Shown here piece by piece: positions 3,675 through 62,341 of a DNA stretch of 64,000 bases; position 1 is the stretch's first letter, and each line of letters starts with the position of its first letter. This DNA comes from Planctomycetota bacterium (GTDB taxonomy: Bacteria; Planctomycetota; Planctomycetia; Gemmatales; Gemmataceae). The notes beneath the pieces were generated by a model. That model was not told where the DNA came from, ran no database searches, and was given only the letters and a program-made list of their open reading frames with translations. The DNA lies in assembly GCA_021807595.1 (NCBI GenBank), contig JAKBCS010000006.1, forward strand, positions 1 to 64,000, written 5' to 3'. Made by a program: the position numbers and the translations under genes.

Positions 3675-3738
3675 GTTTAGCCGCGATCCGAAGGGGAGCG
3701 CGGTCGGTCTCGCGCTCCCCTTCGGGTCGCGGCTAAAC
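3675..3738. repeat. Family A palindrome, 9 nt downstream of parA-like stop
   Basis: gtttagccgcgatccgaaggggagcgcg / cgcgctccccttcgggtcgcggctaaac; 28-nt arms with one G.T-type mismatch. Confidence 0.9.
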
Positions 3739-3746
3739 GTATTGTA

Positions 3747-4628
3747 TCACGCCGGCACGGGCGATTCTTGGCGTTCGACGCGGAGAACCGTCGCTTGGCC
3801 GCGTTCGTCCATCTCGACGCGCGCCGCCATCACGGTCGGCACTTCACCGAGAACCTCTCGTGCCAACGCGGCGTAGTCTTCCGCTCCGTGGCAGTGCGAG
3901 GCGTAGGCGAAGATGGATTGACCGAAACTCGGGCACTCCGCCAGTTTGATGTTGCGGCGAATGCGCGTGTTGAAGATGCGCGCCTTGGCCCACGGCGCGT
4001 TGGTATTGCGGCTTTTGTCCAGATACTCTTGCAGATCTTGCACGACTTCTTGTGCCAGCCGGGTACTCGATTCGTACAGCGACAGCACAATGCCGGTTAC
4101 TTTCAATGCCGGGTTGATGCGTTTGGCGACCAGCGAAGTCGTCTCCAAAAGTTTGCCCATGCCGTGCAGCGCCAGGAAGTGCGGCTGCAAGGGGATGAAC
4201 ACCTCGTTGGCCGCCGACAAGGCGTTCAGCGTCAGCACGCCCAGCGACGGCGCGCAGTCCATAAAGACGTAATCGAACGCGCCTTCGTCTTGCAGCAGCA
4301 GATCGCGGAGGATGACTTCGCGTCCGACGACGCCGGCCAACTCGACCTCGGCGGCGGCGAGATTGATGTCGGAGCCGGCAACCCACAAGTTGTCTTCGAC
4401 CTTGCGCCGGACCTCGGCCAAGGGGCGATTGTTGACCAACACGTCGTACATGGACGGCGCTTTGCCGTCCGGCTCAACGCCCAGATGCGTGGTGGCATGG
4501 GCTTGGGGGTCGAGATCGAGAACGCAGACGCGCTGGCCACACTCCGCGAGAGCCGCCGCCAAGTTCACCGCCGTCGTCGTCTTGCCCACGCCACCCTTTT
4601 GATTGATGATCGCAATCCGTCGCATGAA
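3747..4628 (-). CDS. ParA/MinD-family ATPase
   Basis: '[27 protein letters not shown]' Walker A, '[18 protein letters not shown]'. Start set to 4628 because the longer ORF (4883) overlaps cysK. Confidence 0.88.
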
Positions 4629-4744
4629 GGCTCCTCGGAATAATTCGTCCGTGATTTCGAGATCCAAGAAAGCGATTATACGCCGAAGGGGCAAAGGCGC
4701 GAACCCCAAGCCGCGCCGCCTTTTCTGCTCGGGTATCGGTACGA

Positions 4745-5710
4745 TCATTCGGGATACAGTGCGGTACTCAGATAGCGTTCGCCCAGGTCGGGTAAAATGA
4801 CGACGATGAGCTTGCCGGCGTTCTCCGGACGATGGGCCGCTTGCACGGCGGCATGCGCGGCAGCGCCGCAGCTGATGCCGCACAGCATCCCCTCTTCGCG
4901 CGCCAGACGCCGTGCCATGACGAAGGCGTCGTCGTCGTGAACCTGAATTACTTCATCGACGATCTCAAGATTCAGGTTCTTGGGGACGAACCCCGCGCCG
5001 AGTCCTTGAATCTTGTGCGGAGCCGGTTTGAGCGGTTCCTTGTTCCGCGTCTGGGTGATGACGGCGCTGCCGCTCGGCTCGACGGCGATGGCCTTGAAGC
5101 TGGGTTTCCGTTTCTTGATGACTTCGCTCACGCCGGTGATGGTGCCGCCGGTTCCCACGCCGGAAATCAGAATGTCTACCTTGCCGGCCGTGTCGTTCCA
5201 AATCTCTTCGGCGGTAGTCTGCCGATGGACCTCCGGATTGGCCGGGTTCTCGAACTGCTGCGGCATGAACGAATTGGGCACGGTGCGGAGCAATTCGTTG
5301 GCCTTCTCGATGGCCCCCTTCATGCCGGTCTCGCGCGGCGTCAGCACGACCTCGGCTCCAAACGCCTTGAGCAGACGACGGCGTTCGAGGCTCATGCTCT
5401 CCGGCATGGTGACGACCAACTTGTAGCCGCGCGCGGCGCAGGTGAAGGCCAAGCCGATGCCCGTGTTGCCGCTCGTCGGTTCGATAATGGTGGTTCCCGG
5501 TTTGATGCGTCCGTCGCGTTCGGCGGCGGTTATCATCGCCACACCGATACGATCCTTAACCGACCATAAGGGATTGAAATTCTCCATTTTAGCGACCACG
5601 TCGGCCTTGGCGTCGCCGACGACGCGCCGCAGTCGAATCAGCGGGGTCGCGCCGATGGTTTGCGTGATGTCGTCGTAAATGCGGCCACGGAAACTCGCTG
5701 CCTGCGTCAT
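4745..5710 (-). CDS. cysK: Cysteine synthase (O-acetylserine sulfhydrylase)
   Basis: '[19 protein letters not shown]', '[13 protein letters not shown]', '[11 protein letters not shown]'; start at [14 protein letters not shown]. Confidence 0.92.
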
Positions 5711-5911
5711 TGCGCATTCTCCTCGATATTGACGTTTCGATACGGACGTTCGGGGCTTATCATAGAGAGGTTTTGCCGGACTATGCAAGAGACGAACCCG
5801 CCCATCTCCGACTTCGATTCGCCGCAACCCGAAGCGGAGCGCGTCGAACCTTCCGTGAAAAGATGCCGCCTCAATGCGCCGTCTCGGTTTGCAATTGCGA
5901 AAGGCCGCGCC

Positions 5912-8440
5912 ATGTTTACCGTTTGCAATGTACGGATGGACATTTTATTTCTATCCGCTTTAAGTTTTTTGATGGCGAACGCCCCAGGATTGGCGTTGCC
6001 TGACGGAGCCGTCGCCGAGTTAGGCTCGTCGCTGTTTTGGCACGGCGATGCCGTTGCCGCCCTCGCATTCTCCGTCGACGGCAAACTTCTCGCTTCGGCG
6101 GGTAGCAGCAAGCACAAAGGCGATCCGACGGTCGTTCGTGTGTGGCGTCCGGCTACGGGCGAACAACTATGCCAGATTTTTACTCCCGAGGGCAGGGTTT
6201 CGTCCATGAGCTTTTCCCCGGACGGACGAACCCTGGTGGCGGGATGCGGCTCGCGGGTGATGCTTTGGAACGCTCAAACCGGCAAAGAGATCAAATGCTA
6301 TTCTGCCCACGAAAGCGATGTCTCTTTCGTCCAATTTTCTCCCGAGGGCAAGTCGATCGTTTCGGCGGATCGTTCGGGAGCGGTGCATCGTTGGGAGTGC
6401 GCGACGGCTCGGCGGCTGGACCAGTGGAAGCCGTGGAAGGGCGCGCAGCCGCGCCTGTCCAATGGATTGGCCAAGGAAGAATGCAACGCGGTCGTCGTGT
6501 CTCCCGATGGGAAAACCATCGTCTGGCAGATCTGTTCGTACAAGGTCGTCGGCGATCGAGGTCTCGCGGACGGCGACGGGTATTTCTTGCGCGTCCGCGA
6601 TCTGCGCGCGGGCGGAGGAGCGCGCGAGATCGAGGCGCGGCCTTCGGCCTTCGGCAAGATGGCGTTCGATTCGGATGGGCGGCATCTCGCCTCCGGGTTG
6701 GGCGGCGTTTGGATTTGGGACATCAAGGGCGGAAAGCCGCCGCGCGTCCTCGGCAAAGGACTTGCCAATACCCACGCCTTGGCGTTCTCCGGCGACGGCG
6801 CGCTTCTCGCCTCGCTCCATGCCGACGATGTCGTTCATCTTTGGGACACGAAATCGGGACGGGCCGTCGACCGAATCGTTTGTCGCAGCCGGCGGGACGA
6901 GACATTCGCCTCGTCGCTCGCTTTGTCACCCGACGCTGGGATGCTGGCGACGGGCGGTTCGGAGGCTCCGTTTCTGTGGGATGTGAAGGCCCGACGAGAA
7001 ATGCACCCCGCGACGGGGCATCGAGAGGCGATCCGGCAAGCGGCGTTCGCGCCGGACGGACGCACCTTGACGACCACCGGCTTCCACGTCCAGTGCGTCT
7101 GGGATACGAAAACCTGGAAGGAAACCACTCGATTCGAGCGCGGACGCGCCGCGGTCGCCGACGAAACGACGCTGGCCGTATCCGGTTTGCGGTTTCTGAC
7201 GCAAGCCCGCGATGGGACGGTGCGGCTGCGCGAGACGACCAATGGCAAGGAATTACGCCGCTGTGAAGCGGGACGGTTGGAATTGCGCGAAGGCATTCTC
7301 GCTCCGGATGGCGACAGCGCGATTCTCATTGAAGGAAAGCGGCCGGCGTGTGCCGGCCGGATTGTGGATCTGTCTACCGGCAAGGAACGCGCCTGCCTGA
7401 CCTTTCTCCGTCTCGTGGCCGACCCGATCTATTCGCCGGACGGCAAGCGATTGGCTTGGGTCGGCGAAGACCAATCCGCGCATCTCGTCGAAGCCGCGAC
7501 GGGAAAGGAACGCCGCGCGTTTTCTTCGGCGATTCCTAACTCCATGCAGCAAGACGGATACCAACGATTGGCACTCTCGCAACGAGGCGACTATCTGGCC
7601 TGCCGTTCGTGTCAAAAGCCCCAGGCGATTCGCGTTTGGGAGACGTATAGCGGAGTGGAAATAGGAACAATTGTCGCGCCGGACGAGTCGGCAGGGTTTA
7701 CCGCCTTCGCGCTCTCGCCCGACGGTCGAACGGTGGCTGTGGGACAGGACGACGCTGTCCGCCTGTGTGAGACGGCTTCCGGGCAGATGTATCGTCGAAT
7801 GCCGGGGCACCGCGACACGGTGTTGACGCTGGCCTATTCCGCCGAGGGATCGCTGCTCGTCTCCGGCAGCCGAGACCACACCGCCCTGGTTTGGGACGCG
7901 CGACATCCGAAACGGGAGACCGAAGCGAGATATACAGAACGGGAATTGTCGACGTTGTGGTCGGCGCTCCGGCTGGACGCCTCTCAAGGCGTCGAAGCCG
8001 CTTGGAAGTTGGGCAATATCCCCAGCCAGAGTGTGCCGTTTTTGAAGAAACGTCTGCAACCGGCCGTAGTGATATCGAAGGCTCAGATACAACAACTCTT
8101 GCTCGATCTCGACGACGACGTCTTCAAGGTGCGGGAAAGGGCGTCGAATCGTCTGGCACAACTTGCGGAGCGCGTCGAGGCGGACCTGCGCAAGACGCGG
8201 AAGGAATCTCCTTCGCCCGAAGTGCGCCGCCGCATCGACTTTCTGCTGGCGGATCTGCAAAGGCATGCGGTGGAGCGCGCGGCAGAGCAACTCCGCGCCG
8301 TTCGTGCCGTGGCCAGTCTGGAATATGCGGCCACCCCCGAAGCGCGGGTGCTGTTGGCGTCGCTGAGTCGAGGCGGCGACGATGTCCCTTTGACCCGCGA
8401 AGCCAAGGCCGCCCTGAGACGCCTGGACAACCATCCTTAG
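5912..8440 (+). CDS. WD40-repeat protein with C-terminal helical module
   Basis: Many 'LAFSxDGxxLASGxxDxxVxLWD' repeats; signal peptide after [28 protein letters not shown]; start uncertain (5783 also possible). Confidence 0.82.
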
Positions 8441-8474
8441 CCCCGTATTTCCCAGATGGCTTTGTCGTTTCGGC

Positions 8475-8918
8475 ATGGCGTTTGCGCCTTTTCCCCGAAA
8501 ACCCAGCGTTTCCAACAACTCCCTGCTGAAACGACTGAGGAACCCAATGGGTGAGAGCAAAACGATCCCCTGCGGCTCGATTTCGACCGCTGATGAGGCA
8601 ATTTCGCCGTATTGCGGCCGGCATCGCTGGTACAGAGATACCTGCGCCGCCCCGGACAACGAGGCGGAGGCGACCGCTTGGTTTCTTGGCGTCGAATCGG
8701 GACGGCCGAAGTCGCAGATCTATATCACGATGAAGTTCAAGGGCCGAGAGGGGGGCGGCGTGTTCGTGGCTTATTGCCAACTTGCGGACATCAAGCTGAA
8801 ATGGCTGGACGCCGATACGCTGCGGATCTCCTATCCGAAGGCGGCCAAGGTCGAGGAACCACAAACAAAAAGTAGCTTCTGCGGTCGCACGGTCGCGGTG
8901 AGTTACCGCCGTGTTTGA
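8475..8918 (+). CDS. Hypothetical protein
   Basis: Compositionally plausible; 'SQIYITMKFKG...IKLKWLDADTLRISYPKAAKVEEPQTKS' resembles small beta-rich hypotheticals; start uncertain. Confidence 0.5.
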   Translation: MAFAPFPRKPSVSNNSLLKRLRNPMGESKTIPCGSISTADEAISPYCGRHRWYRDTCAAPDNEAEATAWFLGVESGRPKSQIYITMKFKGREGGGVFVAYCQLADIKLKWLDADTLRISYPKAAKVEEPQTKSSFCGRTVAVSYRRV

Positions 8919-8964
8919 AGCTGTCCCTGGTGCAACAGGCTGGGCAGCAGCTAACCAACGGATG

Positions 8965-9032
8965 AAGCTGACCGGGGCCGCCACCTCGGTTTCGCGCGTT
9001 ACGAAAGGCCTTGCAGTCGGCCCCGGCAGCTT
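8965..9032. repeat. Imperfect inverted repeat / possible dispersed-repeat remnant
   Basis: aagctgaccggggccg...cggccccggcagctt arms; reads 'AANQRMKLTGAATSVSRVTKGLAVGPGSLADRSA' in one frame. Confidence 0.45.
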
Positions 9033-9129
9033 AGCCGACCGTTCGGCGGGTAACGCCCTAATTTGAGTCGTGAGTCCAGGCCCTATCAGAGCTGAAAGCG
9101 ATAAGTAAGGGTTAGCAGTACAGCGTTAC

Positions 9130-9177
9130 TGCCCTCTCCCCTGAGTCCAGGGGAGAGGGGGTTTTGGGGACAGACTC
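9130..9177. repeat. Family B half copy
   Basis: gccctctcccctgagtccaggggagagggg...ggggacagactc, shared with 2219..2506 and 31315..31393. Confidence 0.75.
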
Positions 9178-9178
9178 C

Positions 9179-9222
9179 GATCTGGGGCTTGTTGCTTGCA
9201 TCCAAGCAACAAGCCCCAGATC
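9179..9222. repeat. Perfect 20-bp inverted repeat downstream of glutamine synthetase
   Basis: gatctggggcttgttgcttg-catc-caagcaacaagccccagatc. Confidence 0.9.
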
Positions 9223-9244
9223 AAAAACGGACGGGCGAAGAAGC

Positions 9245-11431
<2,187 letters not shown>

Positions 11432-11527
11432 GGTGTTGGGTACTCAATCGTTTGGTGAGGGAGAGGATCGATTCCTAAATAAAAGAAACAACTCACTAGT
11501 TTAGTGGGGTCGGTAAATTCGGGTAGT

Positions 11528-11590
11528 CTACCAGCCCGAAGCGCCAGTGAGGGCCGAAAGAAAGCCCTCGCCGGCGCTTCGGGCTGGTAG
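11528..11590. repeat. Family D palindrome, 7 nt downstream of P-II stop
   Basis: ctaccagcccgaagcgccagtgagggc / gccctcgccggcgcttcgggctggtag. Confidence 0.9.
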
Positions 11591-11597
11591 AGTTGAG

Positions 11598-11951: not shown

Positions 11952-11997
11952 TCCGTAAATATCCTAAAAAAATCGTTGTGGGAGTGTAGACATTCCG

Positions 11998-12060
11998 GTT
12001 GGCCGCGACGCGCGGCGGAGCGCGGGCGTAACTCGCGCTCCGCTGCGCGTCGCGGCTAAC
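11998..12060. repeat. Family A palindrome downstream of amt (plus a half copy at about 12067-12083)
   Basis: gttggccgcgacgcgcggcggagcgcg / cgcgctccgctgcgcgtcgcggctaac. Confidence 0.9.
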
Positions 12061-12078
12061 CTCCTTCGCGCGTCGCGG

Positions 12079-17564: not shown

Positions 17565-17625
17565 GTTTAGCCGCGGAGCGGAGCGCGGGATCGATCCCGC
17601 GCTCCGCTCCGCGCCGCGGCTAAAC
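17565..17625. repeat. Family A palindrome between rpsB and tsf
   Basis: gtttagccgcggagcggagcgcgggatcgatcccgcgctccgctccgcgccgcggctaaac. Confidence 0.9.
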
Positions 17626-21842: not shown

Positions 21843-21907
21843 GTACAGCGCTACTCCCCACTCCCTTGTATTCAGGGAAGCGGGGAGAATCCGAGAGTAG
21901 CGGTGTA
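21843..21907. repeat. Palindrome 4 nt downstream of lpxI (family B-related)
   Basis: gtacagcgctactccccactccct...gagtagcggtgtac nested arms. Confidence 0.75.
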
Positions 21908-26201: not shown

Positions 26202-26411
26202 ATGCGTCGCACTTGGATTTTGGAATCGACGGCTAAAGCCGCACGCCTGCTTCGCCGAGGTTGTGGTTTTGCCTTATGCTTCACTGCGTTCAGCAGCGTG
26301 GCCTGGGCTCTTCCGGGTGCTCCCGAAATCGATCCCGGTTCGGCGGCCAGTTCGCTGGCGCTCTTGGCGGGCGGCGTGATGTTAGTCTACGACCGCTATA
26401 GCCGCCGTTAG
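26202..26411 (+). CDS. Small VPEID-CTERM-type exosortase target (69 aa)
   Basis: C-terminus 'APEIDPGSAASSLALLAGGVMLVYDRYSRR'; RBS ggagg; immediately upstream of exosortase E. Confidence 0.82.
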   Translation: MRRTWILESTAKAARLLRRGCGFALCFTAFSSVAWALPGAPEIDPGSAASSLALLAGGVMLVYDRYSRR

Positions 26412-26419
26412 TCTCCTTC

Positions 26420-26475
26420 GGAGCTGGAAGCGTCGGCGACGGTTTTTCTTTGCCGCCGCCGACGCTTCCGGCTCC
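26420..26475. repeat. Palindrome 8 nt downstream of the VPEID-CTERM gene
   Basis: ggagctggaagcgtcggcg...cgccgacgcttccggctcc. Confidence 0.85.
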
Positions 26476-26588
26476 GATCCTTAGGGTTATCAACTCCCCA
26501 GACCCCGCCGTTGTCTCACGACAGCGCGCGGGGCTTTTTCTTGCGCGCAGCGCGGCGACGCATGGGGTATCCTTTCGGTATCGTCCCG

Positions 26589-31314: not shown

Positions 31315-31393
31315 AGAGTCTGTCTCACATGCTCCCCTCTCCCCTGTACTCAGGGGAGAGGGGTCGGGGGTGAGGGGCTTCGGAGACAGACTC
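31315..31393. repeat. Family B palindrome, single-unit copy
   Basis: agagtctgtctcacatgctcccctctcccctgtactcaggggagagggg...gagacagactc. Confidence 0.88.
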
Positions 31394-37019: not shown

Positions 37020-37020
37020 G

Positions 37021-37081
37021 GTTGGCCGCGACGCGGAGCGGAGCGCGAATGCGCTCTGCTCTGCTCCGCGACGCGACTAAC
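37021..37081. repeat. Family A palindrome, 1 nt after prepilin peptidase stop
   Basis: gttggccgcgacgcggagcggagcgcgaatgcgctctgctctgctccgcgacgcgactaac. Confidence 0.88.
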
Positions 37082-37293
37082 CGAAATCTGCGCTCTAAAC
37101 CGCAAGCGGCGCAGACTCGGCAGGTTTGCTACAAGCGATAAAGTTGAAGTTCGGCGTTGCGGATTGTCGAAAGTAACGGTGGCAGCATCGAGGGGATGCG
37201 GAATGTGGAAGTCGGACGGCGGAACGGATGCAGAATAAGTCGTCTGGGCTCTCGCAATCGCTTCGGTTCTCCACGCCAATTGAGGTATGCTCC

Positions 37294-38421: not shown

Positions 38422-38461
38422 ACCGGGGAACGGGGCCGCGCGAGCGCCCCCGTTCCCCGGT
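38422..38461. repeat. Inverted repeat downstream of cpaB
   Basis: accggggaacggggc...gcccccgttccccggt. Confidence 0.75.
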
Positions 38462-40217: not shown

Positions 40218-40292
40218 GTCGGCAGTCGGTCTTCGGCTATCGGCACTCCCCGCGATCCATCGGAGTGCCGAGCGCCGAAAGCCGACTGCCGA
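40218..40292. repeat. Long imperfect palindrome 8 nt downstream of cpaC
   Basis: gtcggcagtcggtcttcggctatcggcactcc / ggagtgccgagcgccgaaagccgactgccgag. Confidence 0.85.
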
Positions 40293-41520: not shown

Positions 41521-41526
41521 AATACC

Positions 41527-41589
41527 GTATAGCCGCGAGCCGCAGCGGAGCGCGTCGGCTCCGCACGCCGCTGCGCCTCGCGGCTATAC
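41527..41589. repeat. Family A palindrome with compensatory outer box (GTATAGCC/GGCTATAC)
   Basis: gtatagccgcgagccgcagcggagcgcg...cgccgctgcgcctcgcggctatac. Confidence 0.88.
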
Positions 41590-41625
41590 GAACATTTCGT
41601 TTGGCCGATAGCCGAGGGAGACGCC

Positions 41626-43002: not shown

Positions 43003-43105
43003 AGGCGAACCGGCAGCGTATGCTGCCGGGTACGGCGAACCGGCGGCGCAACCTGCCGGGTATTTACAGTACCACCCGGCAGCGTCTGCTGCCGGGTCGC
43101 CAACC
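43003..43105. repeat. Family C palindromic repeat cluster downstream of cpaF
   Basis: ggcgaaccggcagcgtatgctgccgggtacggcgaaccggcggcgcaacctgccgggt...acccggcagcgtctgctgccgggtcgcc. Confidence 0.88.
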
Positions 43106-44079: not shown

Positions 44080-44085
44080 CTATCG

Positions 44086-44149
44086 CCAGCTCGGAGCGCC
44101 GGCGACGGGACGAATACCCATACGCCGGCGCTCCGGGCCGGCCAGCGGT
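44086..44149. repeat. Family D-like palindrome 6 nt downstream of tadB
   Basis: cgccagctcggagcgccggcg...cgccggcgctccgggccggccagcg. Confidence 0.8.
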
Positions 44150-45194: not shown

Positions 45195-45262
45195 AGTTCT
45201 GAGTACCGAGTTCTGAGTTCTGAGTTTCTTAACTCAGAACTCAGAACTCGGTACTCAGAACT
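45195..45262. repeat. Perfect 32-bp inverted repeat (4-nt loop) downstream of tadC
   Basis: agttctgagtaccgagttctgagttctgagtt-tctt-aactcagaactcagaactcggtactcagaact. Confidence 0.97.
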
Positions 45263-45280: not shown

Positions 45281-46048
45281 ATGAAGGGATTCATGAGTAA
45301 GGGCATGGCCGTTTTGTGCTGTGTCGCGGCGTCGGCGGGCATCGGATGCTTGCCGGATCGATACGTCGATCCGTGTTATCCCATGCGCTACAACTATATG
45401 GCTCGGCAGTCGATCGACGCGGGCATGGCTCCGCAAGTGCAAAACGGGCATGTACTCGATCAGACGATCTGGAACTATTACTTTGAGCCAAGCACCGACA
45501 AGCTGACGACCGGCGGTCTGGAGCGTTTGGCGTACATCGCCCGGCGTCGGCCTTGCCCCGATACCGTGCTGTATTTGCAGACGGCGCAAGATCTGGTTTA
45601 CGATCACAAGGCACCGGAGAAGATGGCGGAAGATCGACAAACGCTGGACGGTAAACGCATCGCCGCCGTCCAAGCCTATCTAACGGCGCAGACCGTGGGC
45701 CGTCCAACTTCGTTCCAGGTCGTCATTCACGATCCGGCCGAACCCGCACTGGCCTCGGCGGCAGCCAACAACATGGTGTCGCAGAACTACTACCGCTTCA
45801 TGGGCGGCAACTTTATGGGTGGCGGCATGGGCGGCATGGGTATGGGCGGCATGGGTATGGGCGGCATGAACATGGGCGGCGGCATGGGCGGCGGCATGGT
45901 CGGCGGCATGAATATGGGCGGTGGCATGGGTGGCGGCATGGGCGGCGGTATGGGCGGCGGTATGGGCGGAGGCATGGGTGGCGGCATGGGCGGAGGCATG
46001 GGCGGAGGCATGGGCAGCACCGGCGGCGGCAACGTCACCGGACGCTAA
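45281..46048 (+). CDS. Putative lipoprotein, divergent OmpA-like domain plus Gly/Met repeat tail
   Basis: 'CCVAASAGIGC' leader; 'FEPSTDKLTTGGLERLAYIARR...LDGKRIAAVQAYL'; tail 'GGGMGGGMGGGM'. Confidence 0.7.
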   Translation: MKGFMSKGMAVLCCVAASAGIGCLPDRYVDPCYPMRYNYMARQSIDAGMAPQVQNGHVLDQTIWNYYFEPSTDKLTTGGLERLAYIARRRPCPDTVLYLQTAQDLVYDHKAPEKMAEDRQTLDGKRIAAVQAYLTAQTVGRPTSFQVVIHDPAEPALASAAANNMVSQNYYRFMGGNFMGGGMGGMGMGGMGMGGMNMGGGMGGGMVGGMNMGGGMGGGMGGGMGGGMGGGMGGGMGGGMGGGMGSTGGGNVTGR

Positions 46049-46082: not shown

Positions 46083-46117
46083 GGCCAGGGAAGGCTCCGA
46101 GGGAGCCTTCTCTGGCC
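46083..46117 (+). terminator. Terminator-like hairpin
   Basis: ggccagggaaggctcc-gag-ggagccttctctggcc followed by gatttcgtctt; stem 16 bp, weak T-rich tail. Confidence 0.55.
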
Positions 46118-46461: not shown

Positions 46462-47811
46462 GTGCAACAGCTCAAGCGAAGCGGGATGGATTGGGACAAC
46501 AACACGCTGCCGGAAGCCCCGAGCGCGCCGGAGACGCTGAAGCAAACGGGGCTGACGCTTGGATTCCTCAACGATCTGATTCTGCGCGTCCTGTATACGC
46601 GCGGCGGCATGCTCGGCCTCGATCTATCGCGGTTGCTGTGTCTGCCCTTCAAGATCGTCGAAGAAGCCCTGACGTTTCTGAAAAACGAAAAGTGTGTCGA
46701 AGTGTTGGGCGGCGATCTCATTGGCCGCATCAGCTATCGCTTCAATCTGACCGAACTGGGACGCCGCCGCGCTCAGGAAGTCCTCAAGCAGTGCGCCTAC
46801 GTCGGCCCCGCGCCGGTTCCGTTGGAAGATTACGTCGAGCAAGTCTATCGCCAGGCCGTGACTTCCATCGATGTGTCGCCGGATTCGCTCCGCGCCGCCT
46901 TCGCCCATCTGGTGGTCAGCGACGATCTGTTCAACGCCGTCGGCCCGGCCATTGTCAGTGGCAAATCGGTGTTCATCTACGGCCCGCCCGGCAACGGCAA
47001 AACCGCGATGGCGCAGTCCATCGGCGCGTTTATGAATTCGTGCGGCGGAGAGATTTTCGTACCCCACGCCTTCCTGGCCGAACACAACATCATCACCGTC
47101 TTCGACCGCGCCGTTCACGAGACGGCCGAGGAAGACGCCGGCGAACGGCTGGAAGACAACGAAGCCACCATTCGCCGTCTGCTCAATACCGGGACCGTCG
47201 ATCCGCGCTGGGTCAAAATCAAACGTCCGGTCATCGTCACCGGCGGCGAACTGAATCTGCCCATGCTCGATTTGAAATACTCTCCCGAAGCCAACTACTA
47301 TCAAGCGCCGATGCACGTCAAGGCAAACGGCGGAGTCTTCCTCATCGACGACTTTGGCCGTCAATTGTGTAGTCCCAAGGAATTGCTCAATCGCTGGATT
47401 GTGCCGTTGGAAAATCGCATCGATTACCTATCTCTCGCTTCCGGCCAAAAGTTCCAAGTCCCCTTCGAGCAGCTGACCATGTTCTCGACCAACCTCGACC
47501 CGAAGGATTTGGTCGACGACGCCTTTTTACGCCGCATGAGGCACAAACTCGAAATCAACGCTCCGAAGCGCGACATCTACGAACGCATTTTCAATAGTTA
47601 CTCCAAGCGCTTGGGCATGAACCTGTGCCCCCAGGCCATCGACTATATGTACGAGAACTATTACGATCGCGGTCGTTGCCCGCGCGCCAGCGATTGCCGC
47701 GATTTACTTGAGACGGTGCAGTCGATCTGTCGATTCAGACGTATGCCCGTGCAACTAACGCGCGATCTCATCGCTGAAGCCGCATCCAGTTTCATCCGCG
47801 AGTTCAAATAA
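46462..47811 (+). CDS. AAA ATPase with N-terminal winged-helix-like region, Tad-locus associated
   Basis: 'SVFIYGPPGNGKTAMAQSIG' Walker A, 'GGVFLIDDFGRQ' Walker B. Confidence 0.85.
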   Translation: MQQLKRSGMDWDNNTLPEAPSAPETLKQTGLTLGFLNDLILRVLYTRGGMLGLDLSRLLCLPFKIVEEALTFLKNEKCVEVLGGDLIGRISYRFNLTELGRRRAQEVLKQCAYVGPAPVPLEDYVEQVYRQAVTSIDVSPDSLRAAFAHLVVSDDLFNAVGPAIVSGKSVFIYGPPGNGKTAMAQSIGAFMNSCGGEIFVPHAFLAEHNIITVFDRAVHETAEEDAGERLEDNEATIRRLLNTGTVDPRWVKIKRPVIVTGGELNLPMLDLKYSPEANYYQAPMHVKANGGVFLIDDFGRQLCSPKELLNRWIVPLENRIDYLSLASGQKFQVPFEQLTMFSTNLDPKDLVDDAFLRRMRHKLEINAPKRDIYERIFNSYSKRLGMNLCPQAIDYMYENYYDRGRCPRASDCRDLLETVQSICRFRRMPVQLTRDLIAEAASSFIREFK

Positions 47812-47830: not shown

Positions 47831-47904
47831 GTTGGCCGCGATCCGAAGGGAAGGGCGGGGCAGTCGCGCGATCGCCTCGCGCTCCCCTTCGGGTCGTGGA
47901 TAAC
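47831..47904. repeat. Family A palindrome downstream of AAA ATPase
   Basis: gttggccgcgatccgaagggaagggcg...cgcctcgcgctccccttcgggtcgtggataac. Confidence 0.8.
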
Positions 47905-51263: not shown

Positions 51264-51282
51264 CGCTAATTAATTCCTCGCC

Positions 51283-53157
51283 TCATGCCGACAGCGGTTG
51301 CTCGGCCACGGTTTGTAGACGATCCCAAAACTTCCGCAATCGTTCGACACTATCGCTCGGCAGGTCGCCGTTTGCGTAGACCGCGCGCGCGTACAGAAGC
51401 GCCAGGCGATGCAGTTCCTGCTCCAGTGCCGGAACTTCCGCGCCGACGCGGGCGGCAAACTCCAAAGGCGTCTCGCCGGGATGCCGGCCGAGATCGCGTT
51501 CGCGCGCCCACGCCTGCGCCGCCGCGAAGGTGTAGCGAATCAACTCCGGCACGGCCATGCCTCTTCGCCCTTCCACAAACGGATTGCGGAACGAGGCGAA
51601 GGGACGCTCGCGCGGTCTGTCTTCTTCCGAAACGCTCGATTCTTCCTCGTCGGTCGTTCGCCGTGGTCCGCCGAACAGATTCGCCCAGAAGTTCCGCAAT
51701 GCATCGAGCAACCGCCGCGCCCAGTCGCTGAAGTTGGCCCAAAACTGCAAACCCGAACGCAAGACAAAGAACGCCGCCGCCAGCGCGAGCAGGGCGAAGA
51801 CGATCCATTTGAGTACCGGCGCGATCCGCCCAACGACATTGCGGAGAGCGGAAGGAGACAGCTTTGAGGACGAACCGGATCGCGTTTGGCCGGACGCATC
51901 CTTTTCCGTGGATTCGCCCTTTTGGTCGCCGCGCGCGCGTTCGCCGTCGCCTTTGTCGGCGGGACGATCGCGTCCGGAACCCGGATCGCCCTTGCTCTGC
52001 TTGGGATCGTTCGATTGCCCCCCTTGACTCTGACTTTGCCGGTCGCCGCTCTGGCTCGATTTGCCGTCTTTCCCTCCCGATCCCTTGTCGCCTTGCTCGT
52101 TGGCCGCGCCGCGTTCGCCCTTCTGTTGGCCCCGGTCGCCGCCGGAGTCGGCGCTGTCGTTTTTCCGATCGGGATTGTCTCCATCGGGCCGACCCTCGCC
52201 CTTGCCGGGTTGTCCGCCTTTCATGGCGTATTGGGAGGCGTTGCGCTGGGAAGCCTTCGCCGCCGCGAACGAGAACAACGAATACTCGGCCTGCGGTCTC
52301 GGCATCAGGGCGGCAATCAGCAGGAGTGCGGCGATCGACAAACTTCCCGAAGTCAGCCAAACGCCGGTCATCGTCGCCGGCATTTGCAAGCGGCGCTGGC
52401 GCAAATAGCGGCGTAGGCTAAGAAAACAGGTCGTCAGCAGCAATCCCAAACCGCAGCCGACGTAGACGAGGATCAGCCAAAACGACGACCGCCGGCGGTC
52501 TACGTCGTCCGCGGGGATGAGCGCCTGTCCCAATCCGAACAACGGCAGGGCCGCCAGAGAGAAATAGACAACCCAGACGCCTAATGTGCGTTTTTTCTCC
52601 CGCTCCGCGCGATAGGCCCGCCAGCGCTGCAACCAGCCGGGCGAACCGGCAGCGTTAGCCGCTGGGTTGGGCGAACCCGCTTCACTCGACCCGGCAGCCA
52701 GCGCCGCCGGTTCGCCTTGCAGCCCCGACGCTTGCAGCAATCCCTCGGCATTCATGTCCGCTTCTTCGTCGATGTTGGTGCAGTCCCACGTTAGCCGATG
52801 GGCGCACCACCAAACGAGACCGATCAGACCGGCGTTGAGGATGAAACTGAGTTCGCGCACGCCGCCCGCCGGATACTCGACGAACATTTGCATCCCCAGC
52901 CACGAGAGAAATCCCAACGGCACGCCGTACAAGGCGACGCGGCTGGCGGTGTCGTCGAGCATGGTCATGCGCGCCAGCAGCACCGCGCCGAAGACGAAGA
53001 AGAACAAGATCCACCGCATTCGTTCGACGAATTCGCCGACGTACAGAACGTTGATGAGGAAGAAAACTAAACTGGCGACCAACCCCATGATGAGGGCGGG
53101 ACTGAGGGCCAAGGCAACGTAATCGGCCAAGGTCTGATTTTGCCGTTCGGAAGCCAT
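51283..53157 (-). CDS. DUF4129 domain membrane protein with long charged linker
   Basis: N-terminal TMs; Gly/Asp/Lys/Ser-rich linker; C-terminal 'WARERDLGRHPGETPLEFAARVGAEVPALEQELHRLALLYARAVYANGDLP'. Confidence 0.82.
   Translation of the reverse strand: MASERQNQTLADYVALALSPALIMGLVASLVFFLINVLYVGEFVERMRWILFFFVFGAVLLARMTMLDDTASRVALYGVPLGFLSWLGMQMFVEYPAGGVRELSFILNAGLIGLVWWCAHRLTWDCTNIDEEADMNAEGLLQASGLQGEPAALAAGSSEAGSPNPAANAAGSPGWLQRWRAYRAEREKKRTLGVWVVYFSLAALPLFGLGQALIPADDVDRRRSSFWLILVYVGCGLGLLLTTCFLSLRRYLRQRRLQMPATMTGVWLTSGSLSIAALLLIAALMPRPQAEYSLFSFAAAKASQRNASQYAMKGGQPGKGEGRPDGDNPDRKNDSADSGGDRGQQKGERGAANEQGDKGSGGKDGKSSQSGDRQSQSQGGQSNDPKQSKGDPGSGRDRPADKGDGERARGDQKGESTEKDASGQTRSGSSSKLSPSALRNVVGRIAPVLKWIVFALLALAAAFFVLRSGLQFWANFSDWARRLLDALRNFWANLFGGPRRTTDEEESSVSEEDRPRERPFASFRNPFVEGRRGMAVPELIRYTFAAAQAWARERDLGRHPGETPLEFAARVGAEVPALEQELHRLALLYARAVYANGDLPSDSVERLRKFWDRLQTVAEQPLSA
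52640..52716. repeat. Family C repeat copy inserted in frame in the DUF4129 CDS
   Basis: gcgaaccggcagcgttagccgctgggttgggcgaacccgc...ccggcagccagcgccgccggttcgcc; encodes GEPAALAAGSSEAGSPNPAANAAGSP. Confidence 0.85.
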
Positions 53158-53364
53158 GGAAACAGTCTCTCGCGGAAGAAGGCGAAGATAGATGTAAGGT
53201 CGGAGTTCGCACTTCGTTCATTGTAACCGATTGTATCTCTCTCGATTGATTTTGCTTGCGAAGGGAAGACCGAGCGAAACGACGGCGCGGCCGCTGAAAT
53301 CGGTGTCTTGCGCCGGCCGTGGTGTAGAGCGGTTTCTTTGCGAGTGCATACAACGAACGGTCTC

Positions 53365-53426
53365 GGTCAGCCGCGGCGCAAAGCGGAGCGCGGGACAACG
53401 CGCTCCGCTTTGCGCCGCGGCGAACC
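53365..53426. repeat. Family A palindrome downstream of WD40/HEAT gene
   Basis: ggtcagccgcggcgcaaagcggagcgcgggacaacgcgctccgctttgcgccgcggcgaacc. Confidence 0.9.
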
Positions 53427-53467
53427 AAGCTGTACGAATTTAGCGGGAAAACCGCTCGAGGCGAACC

Positions 53468-56359: not shown

Positions 56360-56365
56360 AACACA

Positions 56366-59233
56366 TCAATCGAACACGCCGCGGACGCGGATGGTCACCG
56401 GCATTTTCTGTTTCGCTCCCGTACTCGAACGCACCGACAGTTCGTATTTGCCGTCCTTGGCGGCGCGAAGACGCCAAGTGACGGGGCTATCCGGACGCTT
56501 CGCCCCGGCGGGAACGGGAGGCACGGGCAAAGTCAGCTGCTGTCCTTCGGCAGTCAACTTGGACGGCAAGTCTAACGTCAGCGTCTCGCCCGGTTGGGGA
56601 TTGTGAACCAGAGCCGTCAGCGTGAACTCGACCTCCGGTACCAATCGCCCTCCAACCGTCAAGAGTAGATGCCCGCCGCTCTCGCGGCTATCCACGTTGC
56701 CCAACCCGTAGGTAAAGCCGACCACGCGCGATTTGCCCGCTTCCAGCCGTTGCTCGCCCCAGTACATCGTCACGGCGGAATCGTTCGCTTCCACGATCTC
56801 TCTTTTCTTATTTTTAAGGATGGCCATGCGCTCCTGGATGGAAATATCGGGCACGACCCAGCCGGTTAGCTGCGCCCGCGCGCCATCAATGCCCCGGCGG
56901 CGAAAGGGGGGACTGGGCTTGCGCAGTTCGGGATTCGGCCAGCCGCCGAGGAAGACCCGACTGGGGCTTTCCACGTTCTTGCCGATCCGAAATTGGAGAT
57001 AGGCCACCGTGCCCGGATTGCGCAGGTCGTCCTTCTCCAGCGCCTGAATGAAGTCCGGCACGCGCTCCGGTCGATCGAAATTCGTCTTGGTGTCGCACAG
57101 ATCGGTCGCGCCGGGGATGGTGAACGGTACGCCGTCGTTGGCCCCGATGAACGTATCGAGCATGAAGCGAATGCCGACGCGATGATCGAGGGTATCGCGG
57201 TTCTCGAGAATATAGCGCACTAAACAGGTATCCAATAGGCGCGATTGTGCGCCGGGAACGATCTCGACTTCTTGGATGATGCGGAGTTTGCGTCCGGGCA
57301 GCCACCAGGTTGAGGCGTAGCCGTCGCGCGGTCGGCCCGCCGTCTCGCCTTGCAGCTTCGTCTTCATTTCGACCCATTCGCCGGGCGAATCGCCCAGATC
57401 GAAGCCCAAGGACGGCTCGTCCGGATTCGCTTCACCGAACAAGAATTGCTTGCCGTCCACCATCAGAACCGTGTTATTCGAGCGCCCGTGTTCATCGAAG
57501 GTTAGTTTCTTAAGTCGGTCGGGATTGCTCGCATCCTTGGCCAAGAGACCAAAGCGCATGGACGGTGCTTTCAGAACCTGATCGCCTTTGTCGTGAAATT
57601 GCAAGACGATGCGCGGGTTGGTATCGAGCAAGGAGTTCTCGGCCTCGTCGCCGCGAGCCGCCGGTTCGAGGACGATCATCCACAGATCGTGGGCCACCAT
57701 CGCGAAAAGCAATAGCGCAAGGACGCTCAAAGGCAGTAGATGTTTGGAGATGCCGCCGGTAGATTTTTCGGGATCGCGCCCCGCTCTGGCTTCTTCGTCG
57801 AAGTCGCTGCCGTCGCGTTTGCCGGATCGTCTTCGGTGCGTCGCCGGCAGCACCTCCATGATCTCTTGCCGTTTTCTAGGCGAAGGTACTTCGTCGAGAG
57901 CGACGACTTCCGGGACGGTCTCCACTTCGGATACCACGTCGGCGGCGGTCAATACCGGCATGGCCGCCAGGACGTGATCCATGTCGAGGACGACGCCCGG
58001 AGCGCGATCGACGCGGGCGGCAATGCGTCCGCCGATGGTCAGCGTCACTTCGACCGCGAAGCGCTGTCCGCCGTTGGCCGTCACTAGCACTTTGCCTTGC
58101 AGCCGTTCGCCGGGACGAGCGGGGACGGCAGGCACCTTGATCGGGACGCGCGCGGTTCGGCCATCGAGAATGACCCGGCCAATTTGCAGCCACGGCGTCG
58201 CGGTCACGGCATGAGCGAACACCGGACGCTTCTCGGCGGCCTGAACCTGTAAGACGTGTTCCACCGGTGTGCCCGGCGCGCCGTGCAGATGAATCGCCGT
58301 CTCGCTGATTTCCACAACGGGCGGTTTGACCAAGCCCAACGCCTCGAAGAACTGTTGAATCGCCCCCAACCCCGACGAAGCCGGCCCTTGCACCGGATAG
58401 GTCCAGCCGTTGCTTTCGTACCAAGCGGCGATCGCGCCTTTCTCGAAAAGCGGCGCGGCACCTTTGGGGTTGGCCTTGGCCTTCTCGGCAATCTGGCGCG
58501 GCGAAGTCGCTCCGGCCAAGACGCCATCGGGAAACGGCTGCACCGGCACATCGGCGCGGACGATCACCACGGCCGATCCGCCGTTCGATTCGATGGTCAG
58601 ACGGCCTTCCAGCGTCTTGTTGCCGGCGCGCAGCGCCTTGCCTTGAACCTGCACCGGCAGCGTGAACTCGTTGAGCGTCTGGAACACTTTGCGCGGCGAG
58701 CCGGTCCCTTCGCCGAGCATTAGCCAGGCCGTTTCGTCGCAGGCAACTGTGCCTTGCAGCAACCCCATGCCCTGATTTTCAAGGTGCAACTCGAAGCGCC
58801 GTCCGCCCAAACGCGCGATCTGGCCGAGGTTGACCTCCAACGGCTGAGCGAACAACTTCGGCGGCTCGCGGTTGCTGCACGGCAGTTTGCTCAACAGATG
58901 ATCGAGACCTCGATCGGCGTCGGCGGAATGGACCGCTTGCTTTGCCGTCAGCGCCAGATCGGCCCGTCCCAGAGCGCCGAAGAAGCTCTCCAAATAGCCC
59001 TGGCGCAACAAATCGAGCGCTTCTTTCCATTCGCCGTAGCAGGCCAATACCAATTCGTCGAAATTGCGACACTGCCGGCCGGACGGAAAGACGAACGGGC
59101 TGAGGAACGGCTGCGCGCCCACGGCAATGGGGCCGCTTTCGCGCGCGCGCCCATCCAATACCGCGCCGTCCCAATAGCAGTAGTGCGCTTCGAGCGGATT
59201 CACCCGCGAACAATTGCGACAAACGAGCGTCAT
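56366..59233 (-). CDS. Large zinc-ribbon protein with Ig-like/beta-sandwich regions and one TM
   Basis: 'MTLVCRNCSRVNPLEAHYCYWDGAVL' ribbon; 'LSVLALLLFAMVAHDLWMIVLEP' TM; long conserved-looking ectodomain. Confidence 0.75.
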   Translation of the reverse strand: MTLVCRNCSRVNPLEAHYCYWDGAVLDGRARESGPIAVGAQPFLSPFVFPSGRQCRNFDELVLACYGEWKEALDLLRQGYLESFFGALGRADLALTAKQAVHSADADRGLDHLLSKLPCSNREPPKLFAQPLEVNLGQIARLGGRRFELHLENQGMGLLQGTVACDETAWLMLGEGTGSPRKVFQTLNEFTLPVQVQGKALRAGNKTLEGRLTIESNGGSAVVIVRADVPVQPFPDGVLAGATSPRQIAEKAKANPKGAAPLFEKGAIAAWYESNGWTYPVQGPASSGLGAIQQFFEALGLVKPPVVEISETAIHLHGAPGTPVEHVLQVQAAEKRPVFAHAVTATPWLQIGRVILDGRTARVPIKVPAVPARPGERLQGKVLVTANGGQRFAVEVTLTIGGRIAARVDRAPGVVLDMDHVLAAMPVLTAADVVSEVETVPEVVALDEVPSPRKRQEIMEVLPATHRRRSGKRDGSDFDEEARAGRDPEKSTGGISKHLLPLSVLALLLFAMVAHDLWMIVLEPAARGDEAENSLLDTNPRIVLQFHDKGDQVLKAPSMRFGLLAKDASNPDRLKKLTFDEHGRSNNTVLMVDGKQFLFGEANPDEPSLGFDLGDSPGEWVEMKTKLQGETAGRPRDGYASTWWLPGRKLRIIQEVEIVPGAQSRLLDTCLVRYILENRDTLDHRVGIRFMLDTFIGANDGVPFTIPGATDLCDTKTNFDRPERVPDFIQALEKDDLRNPGTVAYLQFRIGKNVESPSRVFLGGWPNPELRKPSPPFRRRGIDGARAQLTGWVVPDISIQERMAILKNKKREIVEANDSAVTMYWGEQRLEAGKSRVVGFTYGLGNVDSRESGGHLLLTVGGRLVPEVEFTLTALVHNPQPGETLTLDLPSKLTAEGQQLTLPVPPVPAGAKRPDSPVTWRLRAAKDGKYELSVRSSTGAKQKMPVTIRVRGVFD

Positions 59234-59391
59234 AATCGCCCCGTCCACGCGCCCTGAATCGAGAAAGAGAACAGAGAGTGATTATACCAGGCGGCGCGCG
59301 GAAAGGGAGAAAGAAGTGAAAGGGAAGAGGATACTTTCTCGTTCCCAGCCTCCGCCTGGGAGTGAGATGAAACAATCGCGCCGGCAGTCTC

Positions 59392-60315
59392 TCATTGTTC
59401 TTGCTTCTGGCGTTCGCCGAAACGCAAGACGCACTTTCCCAAGCGGATGGCGTCGCCCGCATGCAGGGTCGCCGAGCCGTGGACGAGGTCGTCGTTGAGG
59501 TAGGTGCCCGCGCCTTCGTCGATCAGGACATAGCGATTGCCCTCGCGGCGGATGCGCGCGTGGAGTTTCTCGATTTGCGGATCGCCGAAGAGGCCGATGT
59601 CGCAACTCTCGGCTCGACCGATGGTGATCTCCGGCTTGGTCAGAATCACTTCGCGTCCCTTGCGAAACCCCGCTTCGACCTTCAACCAGGCTTCTTTGAG
59701 AACGACCTGCGCCACCGAAATCAGCAAGCCGATGCACGCGCCCAAAGAGACGAACCCCCACGAACTGGGACTCCACAATCGCCTCTCTACTTCGGGATCG
59801 CCGCCGAGCAGATGCGTCCAGCCGGCCAAGAGCATCAGCGACAAGATGCCGCCCAGAATGCCGCCCAGCGTGCCGCCGAGTAGCCCTTTGAGAACCTTGC
59901 GCAGGGCCATGGAGGCGTTCCGACCGAGGACCAGACTCGACAGCAGATCGAAAACGCCCAGTGACACGCCGATGAGAAAGCCGGTGATCGTCCAACCGAA
60001 TACCAGGAAGATGCCCCAGTCCTTGAGACCGTAGAGTACCTGCCCGATGAGGCCGCCGAGCAGTCCGCCCATGGCTCCGACCACCACGGCCGTCGCCACG
60101 CGCGCGAAAATCGCCGCCACGTTCCGCAACGAAAAGACCCACAGCGAGTCCACCAGCGCCAACGCCAGCGAGATACCGAAGCCGAGGAACATGCCTTTGA
60201 AGCCTTGCGTCAACACCACATTGTTCAGCGCCAGGGGCCGACCGAGCATCCAGCCCAGAAACGCCCCGCCGCCGCCGCAAAGCATACAATAGTAAATGAA
60301 TAATCGGAACGACAT
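59392..60315 (-). CDS. Membrane-anchored FHA domain protein
   Basis: Multiple Gly-rich TMs; C-terminal FHA 'ITIGRAESCDIGLFGDPQIEKLHARIRREGNRYVLIDEGAGTYLND'. Confidence 0.87.
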   Translation of the reverse strand: MSFRLFIYYCMLCGGGGAFLGWMLGRPLALNNVVLTQGFKGMFLGFGISLALALVDSLWVFSLRNVAAIFARVATAVVVGAMGGLLGGLIGQVLYGLKDWGIFLVFGWTITGFLIGVSLGVFDLLSSLVLGRNASMALRKVLKGLLGGTLGGILGGILSLMLLAGWTHLLGGDPEVERRLWSPSSWGFVSLGACIGLLISVAQVVLKEAWLKVEAGFRKGREVILTKPEITIGRAESCDIGLFGDPQIEKLHARIRREGNRYVLIDEGAGTYLNDDLVHGSATLHAGDAIRLGKCVLRFGERQKQEQ

Positions 60316-60455
60316 GGCGTGGAGAATCTCGCAAGGGAATCGGGGCGAATCTATCTAAGGCGATCGCCGATCTCCTGTCAAGCATCAATTCCTCTATAAT
60401 CCCGTTGTCTCCGCGCGAGCGGAAGAAGAACCGAACGACGACGTTACAAAGGGCG

Positions 60456-62270
60456 ATGCAAATGGCGGAGTGGCGGCGAACGCATAACTGCGGCGAATTA
60501 CGACAAGAACACGCCGGACAGACCGTTGTCTTGAACGGATGGGCCAACAGCTACCGCGCCTATCCCGATCAGGTATTCGTCGATCTGCGCGACCGCTACG
60601 GATTGACGCAGATCGTTCTCGAATCCGATCGCGCCGAGATGTTCGCCGTCGCCCAAGAGATCCGCGACGAATGGGTGCTGTCGGTGCGCGGCAAGGTGCG
60701 GGAGCGGCTGCCGAACAAGCACAATCCCAAGCTGGCGACCGGCGACATCGAAGTGTTGGCCGAGGAACTGATTGTCCTCAATCGCTGTCCCACGCCGCCG
60801 TTCGAGGTCATGTCGATCCCGTTGGAGACTGGCTTCGGCGATCCGGAGCTGGCCGGCGAGGATCTGCGCTTGCAATATCGCTATCTCGATCTGCGCCGCC
60901 CCTCGCTGCAACGCACGGTGGCGCTGCGCCATCGGCTCAACAAGGTTATCCGCGACTACCTCGACCAAGAGCGATTTTTAGAGGTGGAAACGCCTCTTCT
61001 GGGCCGAAGCACGCCGGAGGGAGCGCGCGATTATCTCGTGCCCAGCCGCGTGTGGCAAGACGAGAAGACGGGCAAACCGTTCTGGTACGCGCTACCGCAA
61101 TCGCCGCAGCTGTACAAGCAGTTGCTCATGGTGGCCGGCTACGATCGCTACTTTCAGATCGCCCGCTGTCTCCGCGACGAGGATCTCCGCGCCGACCGGC
61201 AGCCGGAATTCACGCAGCTCGATCTCGAAATGTCGTTCGTCGAGCAAAACGACGTGCTAACGCTCGTCGAGCGGTTGATTGCGGAGATCTTCCAGAAGTG
61301 CGCGGGCGCGACCGTTCCTCTGCCCCTGCCGCGCTTGCCCTACGACAAAGCGATGCTCCAGTACGGCAGCGACAAGCCGGACCTGCGCATCAACGGAATG
61401 GAGATTGTTGAAGTGAGCGATTGGGCAGGATCGACGGAGTTTCGCGTTTTCAAAGACGTCGTTGCCACGGGCGGGAGAGTGCGTGCGATCAATATGAAAG
61501 GTGCGGTAACAAAGTTCACGCGCAAGCAACTCGACGATCTGACTCCCTTCGTGCAACAATACGGTGCCAAGGGGGCGGCTTGGATCAAGGTTGAGGCGGA
61601 CAAGTTTACTTCACCCATTGAAAAGTTTATACCCGCGTCTGCCCAGATGGAATTGCGTGGGCGAGTAGCGGCCGCGGACGGCGACGTGATTGTGTTCGTG
61701 GCCGACAAGGAAGGAGTGGTTTGCCAAGCCCTCGGCCATTTACGCGCGCATTACGCTGGGCATGTGGGCGCAGCCAACTATGCGCCGGGTAATTTCCAAC
61801 TCGCCTGGGTCGTCGATTTTCCTTCGTTTATCTGGGACGACGAGGAGAAGCGCTGGGTGGCGAACCATCATCCGTTCACCGCGCCGCGCGACGAGGATTT
61901 GGCCGTCCTGGAGAGCGATCCGGCCAAGGTGAAGGCCAAGGCATACGATCTGGTTATCAACGGCTACGAGGCTGGGGGCGGCAGTATCCGTATCCACAGC
62001 CCGGAAGTGCAAGGGCGGATGTTCGCCATGCTGGGCATGTCGCCGGAGCAAGCCCGGCAGCGTTTCGGCTTCCTGCTCGACGCCCTGAAATTCGGCGCGC
62101 CGCCGCACGGCGGAATCGCCTTGGGCCTCGATCGTTTGGCGATGATTCTCTCCGGCACCGCGAACATCCGCGATGTCCTGGCGTTTCCAAAGAACCAGAA
62201 GGCGCGCGATCTGATGACCGGAGCGCCGGCCCCGGTCGACGCCAAACAGCTGCGCGAACTGGGCCTCTAA
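60456..62270 (+). CDS. aspS: Aspartyl-tRNA synthetase (bacterial type)
   Basis: 'VFVDLRDRYGLTQIVLE', 'FLEVETPLLGRSTPEGARDYLVPSR', 'GGIALGLDRLAMILSGTANIRDVLAFPKNQKARDLMTGAPAPV'. Confidence 0.96.
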   Translation: MQMAEWRRTHNCGELRQEHAGQTVVLNGWANSYRAYPDQVFVDLRDRYGLTQIVLESDRAEMFAVAQEIRDEWVLSVRGKVRERLPNKHNPKLATGDIEVLAEELIVLNRCPTPPFEVMSIPLETGFGDPELAGEDLRLQYRYLDLRRPSLQRTVALRHRLNKVIRDYLDQERFLEVETPLLGRSTPEGARDYLVPSRVWQDEKTGKPFWYALPQSPQLYKQLLMVAGYDRYFQIARCLRDEDLRADRQPEFTQLDLEMSFVEQNDVLTLVERLIAEIFQKCAGATVPLPLPRLPYDKAMLQYGSDKPDLRINGMEIVEVSDWAGSTEFRVFKDVVATGGRVRAINMKGAVTKFTRKQLDDLTPFVQQYGAKGAAWIKVEADKFTSPIEKFIPASAQMELRGRVAAADGDVIVFVADKEGVVCQALGHLRAHYAGHVGAANYAPGNFQLAWVVDFPSFIWDDEEKRWVANHHPFTAPRDEDLAVLESDPAKVKAKAYDLVINGYEAGGGSIRIHSPEVQGRMFAMLGMSPEQARQRFGFLLDALKFGAPPHGGIALGLDRLAMILSGTANIRDVLAFPKNQKARDLMTGAPAPVDAKQLRELGL

Positions 62271-62341
62271 CCGGCGCACCGGCAGTGTAATCTGCCGAGT
62301 CCAGGCGGCCCGGCAGCGTCAGCCGCCGGGCCGCCTGGCCG
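62271..62341. repeat. Family C palindromic repeat immediately after aspS stop
   Basis: ccggcgcaccggcagtgtaatctgccgagtccaggcggcccggcagcgtcagccgccgggccgcc. Confidence 0.85.

What the first reader, a model, noticed from the sequence alone, without database searches (positions are those of the whole stretch)
3675..62341. Most gene 3' ends carry a long palindrome within about 50 nt of the stop codon, drawn from several unrelated families
Stem-loops of 14-32 bp sit just after parA, glnN, P-II, amt, rpsB, lpxI, VPEID-CTERM, the zincin gene, prepilin peptidase, cpaB, cpaC, cpaE, cpaF, tadB, tadC, the AAA gene, the WD40/HEAT gene and aspS. They fall into at least four sequence families. Most lack a T-tract, and many lie inside operons (cpaE-cpaF, cpaF-tadB, tadB-tadC, rpsB-tsf), so simple intrinsic termination does not explain them. 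REP/BIME elements are the closest established parallel. The multi-family occupation of 3' ends could be an mRNA 3'-end processing/stabilising or transcription-buffering system, or a landing preference of non-autonomous elements.
Basis: partly seen in the sequence, partly recalled or inferred. Interest (0 to 1): 0.75.

Follow-up and report, generated by a model that had tools for sequence, protein, structure and literature searches.

The report
Mobile repeat hairpins behind stop codons
Several families of short, copied-around inverted repeats sit just after stop codons in this planctomycete genome; they look and behave like the REP/REPIN repeats known from other bacteria, so the phenomenon is real but mostly of a known kind, with the unusual twist that sister species sometimes carry unrelated families at the same gene end.

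Summary
In 0.96 Mb of the window's own genome (a Gemmatales planctomycete MAG), strong inverted repeats are almost confined to intergenic DNA, richest between convergent genes, poorest at divergent promoters, and in tandem gaps begin a median 17 nt after the upstream stop (62 of 74 within 50 nt; null 42, maximum 50). None appear in shuffled gaps. 'Most gene 3' ends' is true of the window's Tad operon but not the genome (about 24% of tandem gaps of 60-600 nt). At least seven sequence families explain most of them. The main ones are discrete dispersed units with sharp ends, arranged as inverted doublets in one orientation only, which is REPIN/BIME architecture. They lack the GTRG/CGTC tag, and the genome's only Y1 transposase has lost a catalytic histidine. 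Sister-species comparison shows inherited copies, empty sites, clean insertions, and six 3' ends where the two species carry unrelated palindromes. Stem mismatches show no G-U bias on the mRNA strand, so RNA selection is not what keeps the arms paired. Best reading: REPIN-like non-autonomous repeats that land or survive next to stop codons and secondarily serve as RNA 3'-end hairpins. A selected, interchangeable hairpin slot is possible but not shown.

The parts
3674..3739 (-). F1b doublet (29-bp arms, 8-nt loop), 7 nt after parA stop and 9 nt before the next gene
   Evidence: the sister species has an unrelated F8 palindrome in this 82-nt gap
9179..9222 (-). Perfect 20-bp hairpin, no repeat family, 22 nt after glnN stop
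11527..11591 (-). F8 doublet 6 nt after P-II stop
11997..12061 (-). F1a doublet 17 nt after amt stop; the sister has an F4 doublet here
17572..17613 (-). F1 palindrome between rpsB and tsf, 24 nt after rpsB stop
26418..26477 (+). F2 doublet 6 nt after the short ORF 26202-26411
31334..31363 (+). F3 unit, 66 nt after a stop (MITE-like family, not stop-proximal)
37020..37082 (+). F1a doublet directly after prepilin peptidase; the sister has an inverted heptamer-type (F6) palindrome
38422..38461 (+). Palindrome after cpaB (18-bp arms), inherited in the sister
40219..40292 (+). 31-bp-arm palindrome after cpaC; the sister arms differ strongly yet still pair, with identical downstream flank
41526..41590 (+). 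F1 doublet between cpaE and cpaF
43004..43101 (+). F4 array (three units) between cpaF and tadB; five units in the sister
44085..44142 (+). F8-like doublet between tadB and tadC
45195..45262 (+). F6: perfect 32-bp inverted heptamer-type repeat after tadC
46083..46117 (+). Unique hairpin after the gene 45281-46048
47831..47904 (+). Degenerate F1b doublet after the gene 46462-47811
53366..53425 (-). F1a doublet after the WD40/HEAT gene (core palindrome 53370-53421, 46 nt from the stop)
62273..62338 (+). F4 units and palindrome after aspS

Best explanation
These are several families of short non-autonomous dispersed repeats with REPIN/BIME-like anatomy: units of about 25-28 nt, the main families paired head-to-head as an inverted doublet that makes a 25-30 bp palindrome. 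They spread as discrete units (shown by sharp family ends, near-identical copies at unlinked loci, empty sites and clean insertions) and accumulate just after stop codons, where an insertion breaks neither a gene nor a promoter (inferred; a true insertion preference is equally possible). A minority of the 3'-end palindromes are ordinary unique hairpins, some with T-tracts. Once in place they are transcribed and by analogy with E. coli REPs probably act as a stop for 3'-exonuclease trimming after Rho-type termination, or slow the ribosome when within about 15 nt of the stop (inferred, not tested). The mobilising enzyme appears to be gone from this genome.
For: Placement. Family structure: k-mers, consensus scan with reversed-sequence control 1 hit versus 200, 253 F1 units genome-wide with 0 in the backward-pattern control. 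One-way inverted doublets: F1 24/24 in own and 20/20 in G003, F2 22/23, F8 8/9. Sharp boundaries and mostly 5-10 nt spacers in F1. Mobility: clean F3 insertions in the sister at window 15218 and L041:4452, F1 absent from the sister at C104:24958 and L041:7877. Patchy distribution: F1 253/228/152/13 units in four congeners, 191 in a different genus, zero in most of the family. DNA-level rather than RNA-level symmetry: G-U 37 vs A-C 38. Location bias <20 bp from 3' ends is documented for REPs (PMC3733652) and REP hairpins without U-tracts define many E. coli 3' ends (PMC13289151).
Against: The REP tag (GTRG or CGTC) is absent; single F1, F2 and F8 arms are not convincingly self-folding. No F1-F6 element lay within the fetched flanks (up to 1.5 kb) of any of 30 Y1-family loci. 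Double compensatory changes (10 Watson-Crick, against about 3 double changes of any kind expected) and slower change in stems (8%) than in flanks (12.8%) show that pairing is maintained by something. Unrelated families reuse sites more than expected, which plain neutral insertion does not predict unless the sites are permissive or targeted.
Confidence: 0.75

Rival explanations
1. A selected 3'-end hairpin slot: many genes need a hairpin just after the stop (3' trimming barrier, transcription or translation buffer), and whichever repeat family lands there is kept, so families are interchangeable parts.
For: Tight stop-proximal placement even in gaps with at least 150 nt free (20 of 29 within 50 nt in own); six 3' ends with unrelated palindromes in sister species, 6/18 versus 10/104 at sites without one (p=0.014; reverse direction p=0.011); compensatory changes and slower stems; unrelated palindromes at the same cpaC, cpaE, cpaF and AAA ends across several genera.
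Against: No sense-strand G-U tolerance; 12 of 18 non-shared sites have no replacement palindrome in the sister; Tad junctions are no richer than other tandem gaps in the wider family (42/188 vs 31/137, p=1); only about a quarter of tandem gaps carry one.
Confidence: 0.17
2. Ordinary intrinsic (Rho-independent) terminators that happen to be long.
For: A minority are unique hairpins, some followed by T-rich DNA (C104:16980, C20:39617, L042:10394).
Against: T-rich tails at only 19/197; palindromes lie inside conserved operons (rpsB-tsf, cpa/tad), many within a few tens of nt of the next start; family structure.
Confidence: 0.05
3. Chance or base-composition artefact of a 60% G+C genome.
For: None found.
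Against: 0/306 in shuffled gaps, 56 vs 2 intergenic to genic, replicated in three sets of genomes.
Confidence: 0.01

Closest known systems
REPINs (REP doublets forming hairpins) of Pseudomonas, PMC3116915
   Same: Inverted doublets of a conserved short unit, extragenic, several families per genome, singlets also present
   Different: F1 doublet spacer is mostly 5-10 nt here rather than a spacing of 71 or 110 bp between REPs, so arms form one continuous palindrome; no GTRG tag; no cognate transposase found in the genome
GTAG/CGTC-tagged REPs across prokaryotes incl. Planctomycetes, PMC3733652
   Same: Unidirectional and convergent gene gaps, close to 3' ends (<20 bp), rare at divergent promoters
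   Different: Tags absent; F1 starts (C)GTTTAG or GGTTAG. That paper cites the frequency of GT pairing in stems as support for RNA function; here G-U equals A-C
E. coli REP/BIME elements (3'-end stabilisers, PMC13289151; translation effects within 15 nt of stop, PMC12306157)
   Same: Stem-loops without U-tract just after stop codons, also inside operons
   Different: Sequences unrelated; RNA effects untested here
MITEs of bacterial insertion sequences (for F3 only)
   Same: About 150-nt insertion with inverted ends (GAGTCTGTCCCA-like), clean presence/absence between sisters
   Different: Parent element not identified

Membership tests
REP (as defined in PMC3686654 / PMC3733652) | 5' tetranucleotide GT(A/G)G or CGTC tag | tested here: not met
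   Family consensus boundaries: F1 GTTAGCC, F2 TCGGAGCC, F8 ACCAGCCC, F4 GGCGAACC, F5 CGAGCGG
REP (as defined in PMC3686654 / PMC3733652) | Unit itself palindromic (mini-hairpin) | tested here: inconclusive
   F4 arm folds strongly (z -5.2) and F5 moderately (z -1.9); F1, F2, F8 arms no better than, or only slightly better than, shuffles
REP (as defined in PMC3686654 / PMC3733652) | High copy, extragenic, repeated | tested here: met
   253 F1 units genome-wide; in the 0.96 Mb sample 34 F3, 36 F2, 55 F4, 25 F5, 9 F8, with 5 of 72 F1 units genic
REPIN | Predominantly inverted doublets | tested here: met
   F1 44/44, F2 22/23, F8 8/9 doublets in +- order
REPIN | Cognate RAYT gene flanked by the same REP | tested here: not met
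   One Y1 gene in own genome, PMH instead of HUH and not flanked by any family; its own flanking repeat is single-copy in the sample. One candidate elsewhere: in G023 contig C117 a weak Y1 match (235-414) lies between outward-facing F1 units (23-48 and 659-684); the sequence could not be fetched
Intrinsic terminator | Hairpin followed by U-tract | tested here: not met
   19/197 with at least 5 T in 9 nt
Known structured RNA family | Match to a curated Rfam model | tested here: not met
   No match in the window at gathering threshold
E. coli-type REP function | Stabilises RNA 3' ends / stalls ribosomes | not testable with these tools
   Needs RNA 3'-end mapping and reporter assays

The most novel reading that the evidence does not exclude
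Gene 3' ends in this lineage are reusable hairpin slots: unrelated repeat families replace each other at the same stop-proximal position in sister species because a hairpin there is selected (or because insertion machinery targets existing hairpins), making mobile repeats interchangeable regulatory 3'-end parts.
Probability: 0.18. Interest if true: 0.65.

Novelty: new variant of a known kind. Interest (0 to 1): 0.42.

Why it matters
It extends REPIN-like repeats to several families in Gemmatales planctomycetes that persist at high copy without an intact detected partner transposase, and it offers a sister-species system with inherited, lost, gained and swapped elements at the same gene ends, in which the old question of whether REPs at 3' ends are functional or merely tolerated can be tested directly.

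Tried and rejected
Chance and composition (rejected by shuffles and genic control). Intrinsic terminators (few T-tracts). RNA-level selection as the force keeping arms paired (no G-U bias). RAYT mobilisation by the genome's own Y1 gene (degenerate, unflanked). A RAYT profile built from relatives (A1) found full-length or near-full-length matches in G012, G002 (two stops inside) and G023, many partial pieces in G003 and only tiny remnants in own; F1 and Y1 counts correlate across the family (rho 0.52), which may reflect shared mobile-element load. Special status of Tad-operon sites across the family: no enrichment. Rfam: nothing. The orthologous-site test used three manual same-family assignments, several thresholds and no multiple-testing correction.

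Full report
What was checked. The window is contig C140 (66,353 bp) of a 5.67 Mb, 282-contig Gemmatales planctomycete MAG. The closest named record is JAJXWW010000190.1, 100% identical in its best cpaF segment; genome G003 in the searches is a sister species, about 90% identical in DNA where aligned, and I treat L062 and G003 as the same species.

Inverted repeats of score 16 or more are 56 intergenic versus 2 genic although genic DNA is five times larger. They are densest between convergent genes and rarest between divergent ones (1.87, 0.91 tandem, 0.28 per kb). In tandem gaps they start a median 17 nt after the upstream stop; 62 of 74 are within 50 nt against 41.8 expected if placed at random in the same gaps. 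The same holds in G003 and in other Gemmataceae. Shuffled gaps give none. Sixteen of the named gene ends were confirmed individually. But only about a quarter of tandem gaps of 60-600 nt carry one, so 'most gene 3' ends' applies to the Tad operon, not to the genome.

What they are. Most belong to dispersed families: F1 (GTTAGCCGCGA...GGAGCGCG), F2 and F8 (related, AGCCSGAAGCGYYAGCGASGG), F4 (GGCGAACCGGCAGCGTNAGCTGCCGGGT), F5 (CGAGCGGGGGGCGTNAGCCCCCTGA), F6 (inverted heptamer-type repeats), and F3, which lies further from stops and behaves like a MITE. F1 homology stops within one or two bases of the arms, and F1 doublets are always head-to-head with 5-10 nt spacers in most cases. F1 has 253 units in the own genome, 228 in G003, 152 and 13 in two other congeners, 191 in a different genus and none in most of the family. 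This is REPIN/BIME architecture without the GTRG or CGTC tag.

The mobiliser. The own genome has one Y1-family gene, whose HUH motif reads PMH and whose frame is shorter than the sister orthologue with HMH. No F1-F6 unit lies in the flanks of 30 Y1 loci from relatives. REP families without their RAYT, with the RAYT present in relatives, are documented in Pseudomonas and Stenotrophomonas (PMC3686654).

Comparing sisters. Of 226 orthologous 3' junctions, many palindromes are inherited, some are absent from one species (C104:24958, L041:7877), some are clean insertions (15218, L041:4452), and six carry unrelated palindromes: after parA (F1 versus F8), after amt (F1 versus F4), after prepilin peptidase (F1 versus F6), C20:50362 (F5 versus F8), C60:41929 and C148:11842. 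Unrelated co-occupation is 6/18 at sites with a non-shared palindrome against 10/104 at sites without (p=0.014; other direction p=0.011). This is modest, partly hand-classified evidence that certain 3' ends are reused. Against a strict requirement, 12 of 18 have no replacement palindrome in the sister, and Tad junctions are not enriched across the family.

RNA or DNA? If mRNA hairpins were selected, stems should tolerate G-U on the sense strand. They do not: 37 G-U and 38 A-C mismatches, and 10 versus 19 among changes since the split. Yet pairing is maintained: 10 double Watson-Crick changes, where about 3 double changes of any kind were expected, and stems change less than flanks. A DNA-level process that keeps the arms alike, such as template switching in hairpins or turnover of whole units, fits best; this is inference.

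Function. Few have T-tracts and many lie in operons, so they are not ordinary terminators. In E. coli, REP hairpins without U-tract mark many RNA 3' ends, interpreted as Rho-dependent termination followed by exonuclease trimming to a stabilising hairpin (PMC13289151), and REPs within 15 nt of a stop reduce translation (work cited in PMC12306157). Given the placement here, similar side effects are likely, but untested.

Novelty. The 3'-end bias and multiple families per genome are known for REPs. New here are the families themselves, the missing tag and transposase, and the unrelated palindromes at the same 3' ends in sister species.

Noticed in passing
window 2218-2510, 9131-9160, 21856-21885, 31334-31363: F3 family (CCCCTCTCCCCTGTACTCAGGGGAGAGGGG) looks like an IS-derived MITE with TTAGAGTCTGTCCCA-like inverted ends; the sister carries a clean insertion of about 150 nt after window 15218.
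   Followed up: partly
window 43004-43101 and own contigs C85, C260, C231, C89, C241, C148 (ends): F4 forms tandem arrays, varies in copy number between sisters (3 versus 5 units after cpaF) and coincides with several contig ends, so it probably breaks the assembly.
   Followed up: partly
L001:1485-1902 (G000:C104:23111-23455): The genome's only Y1 transposase, between argH and lysA, has PMH in place of HUH; the orthologue in G003 (L220) has HMH and a longer frame.
   Followed up: yes
G003, several contigs: G003 carries many RAYT-profile fragments, most of them partial, as if decayed, while own has only tiny remnants.
   Followed up: partly
window 52640-52716: An inverted F4 pair lies inside the DUF4129 gene 51283-53157 and is presumably translated.
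   Followed up: no
window 40219-40292 versus L062: The cpaC palindrome arms differ strongly between sisters yet both species keep long pairing arms, while the downstream flank is identical, suggesting arm-to-arm sequence copying.
   Followed up: partly
L063-L084 Tad junctions: Inverted heptamer-type repeats (for example CTGAAAACTGAAAACTG, GGACTAAGGACTAAGGAC) form 3'-end palindromes in several Gemmataceae genera.
   Followed up: no
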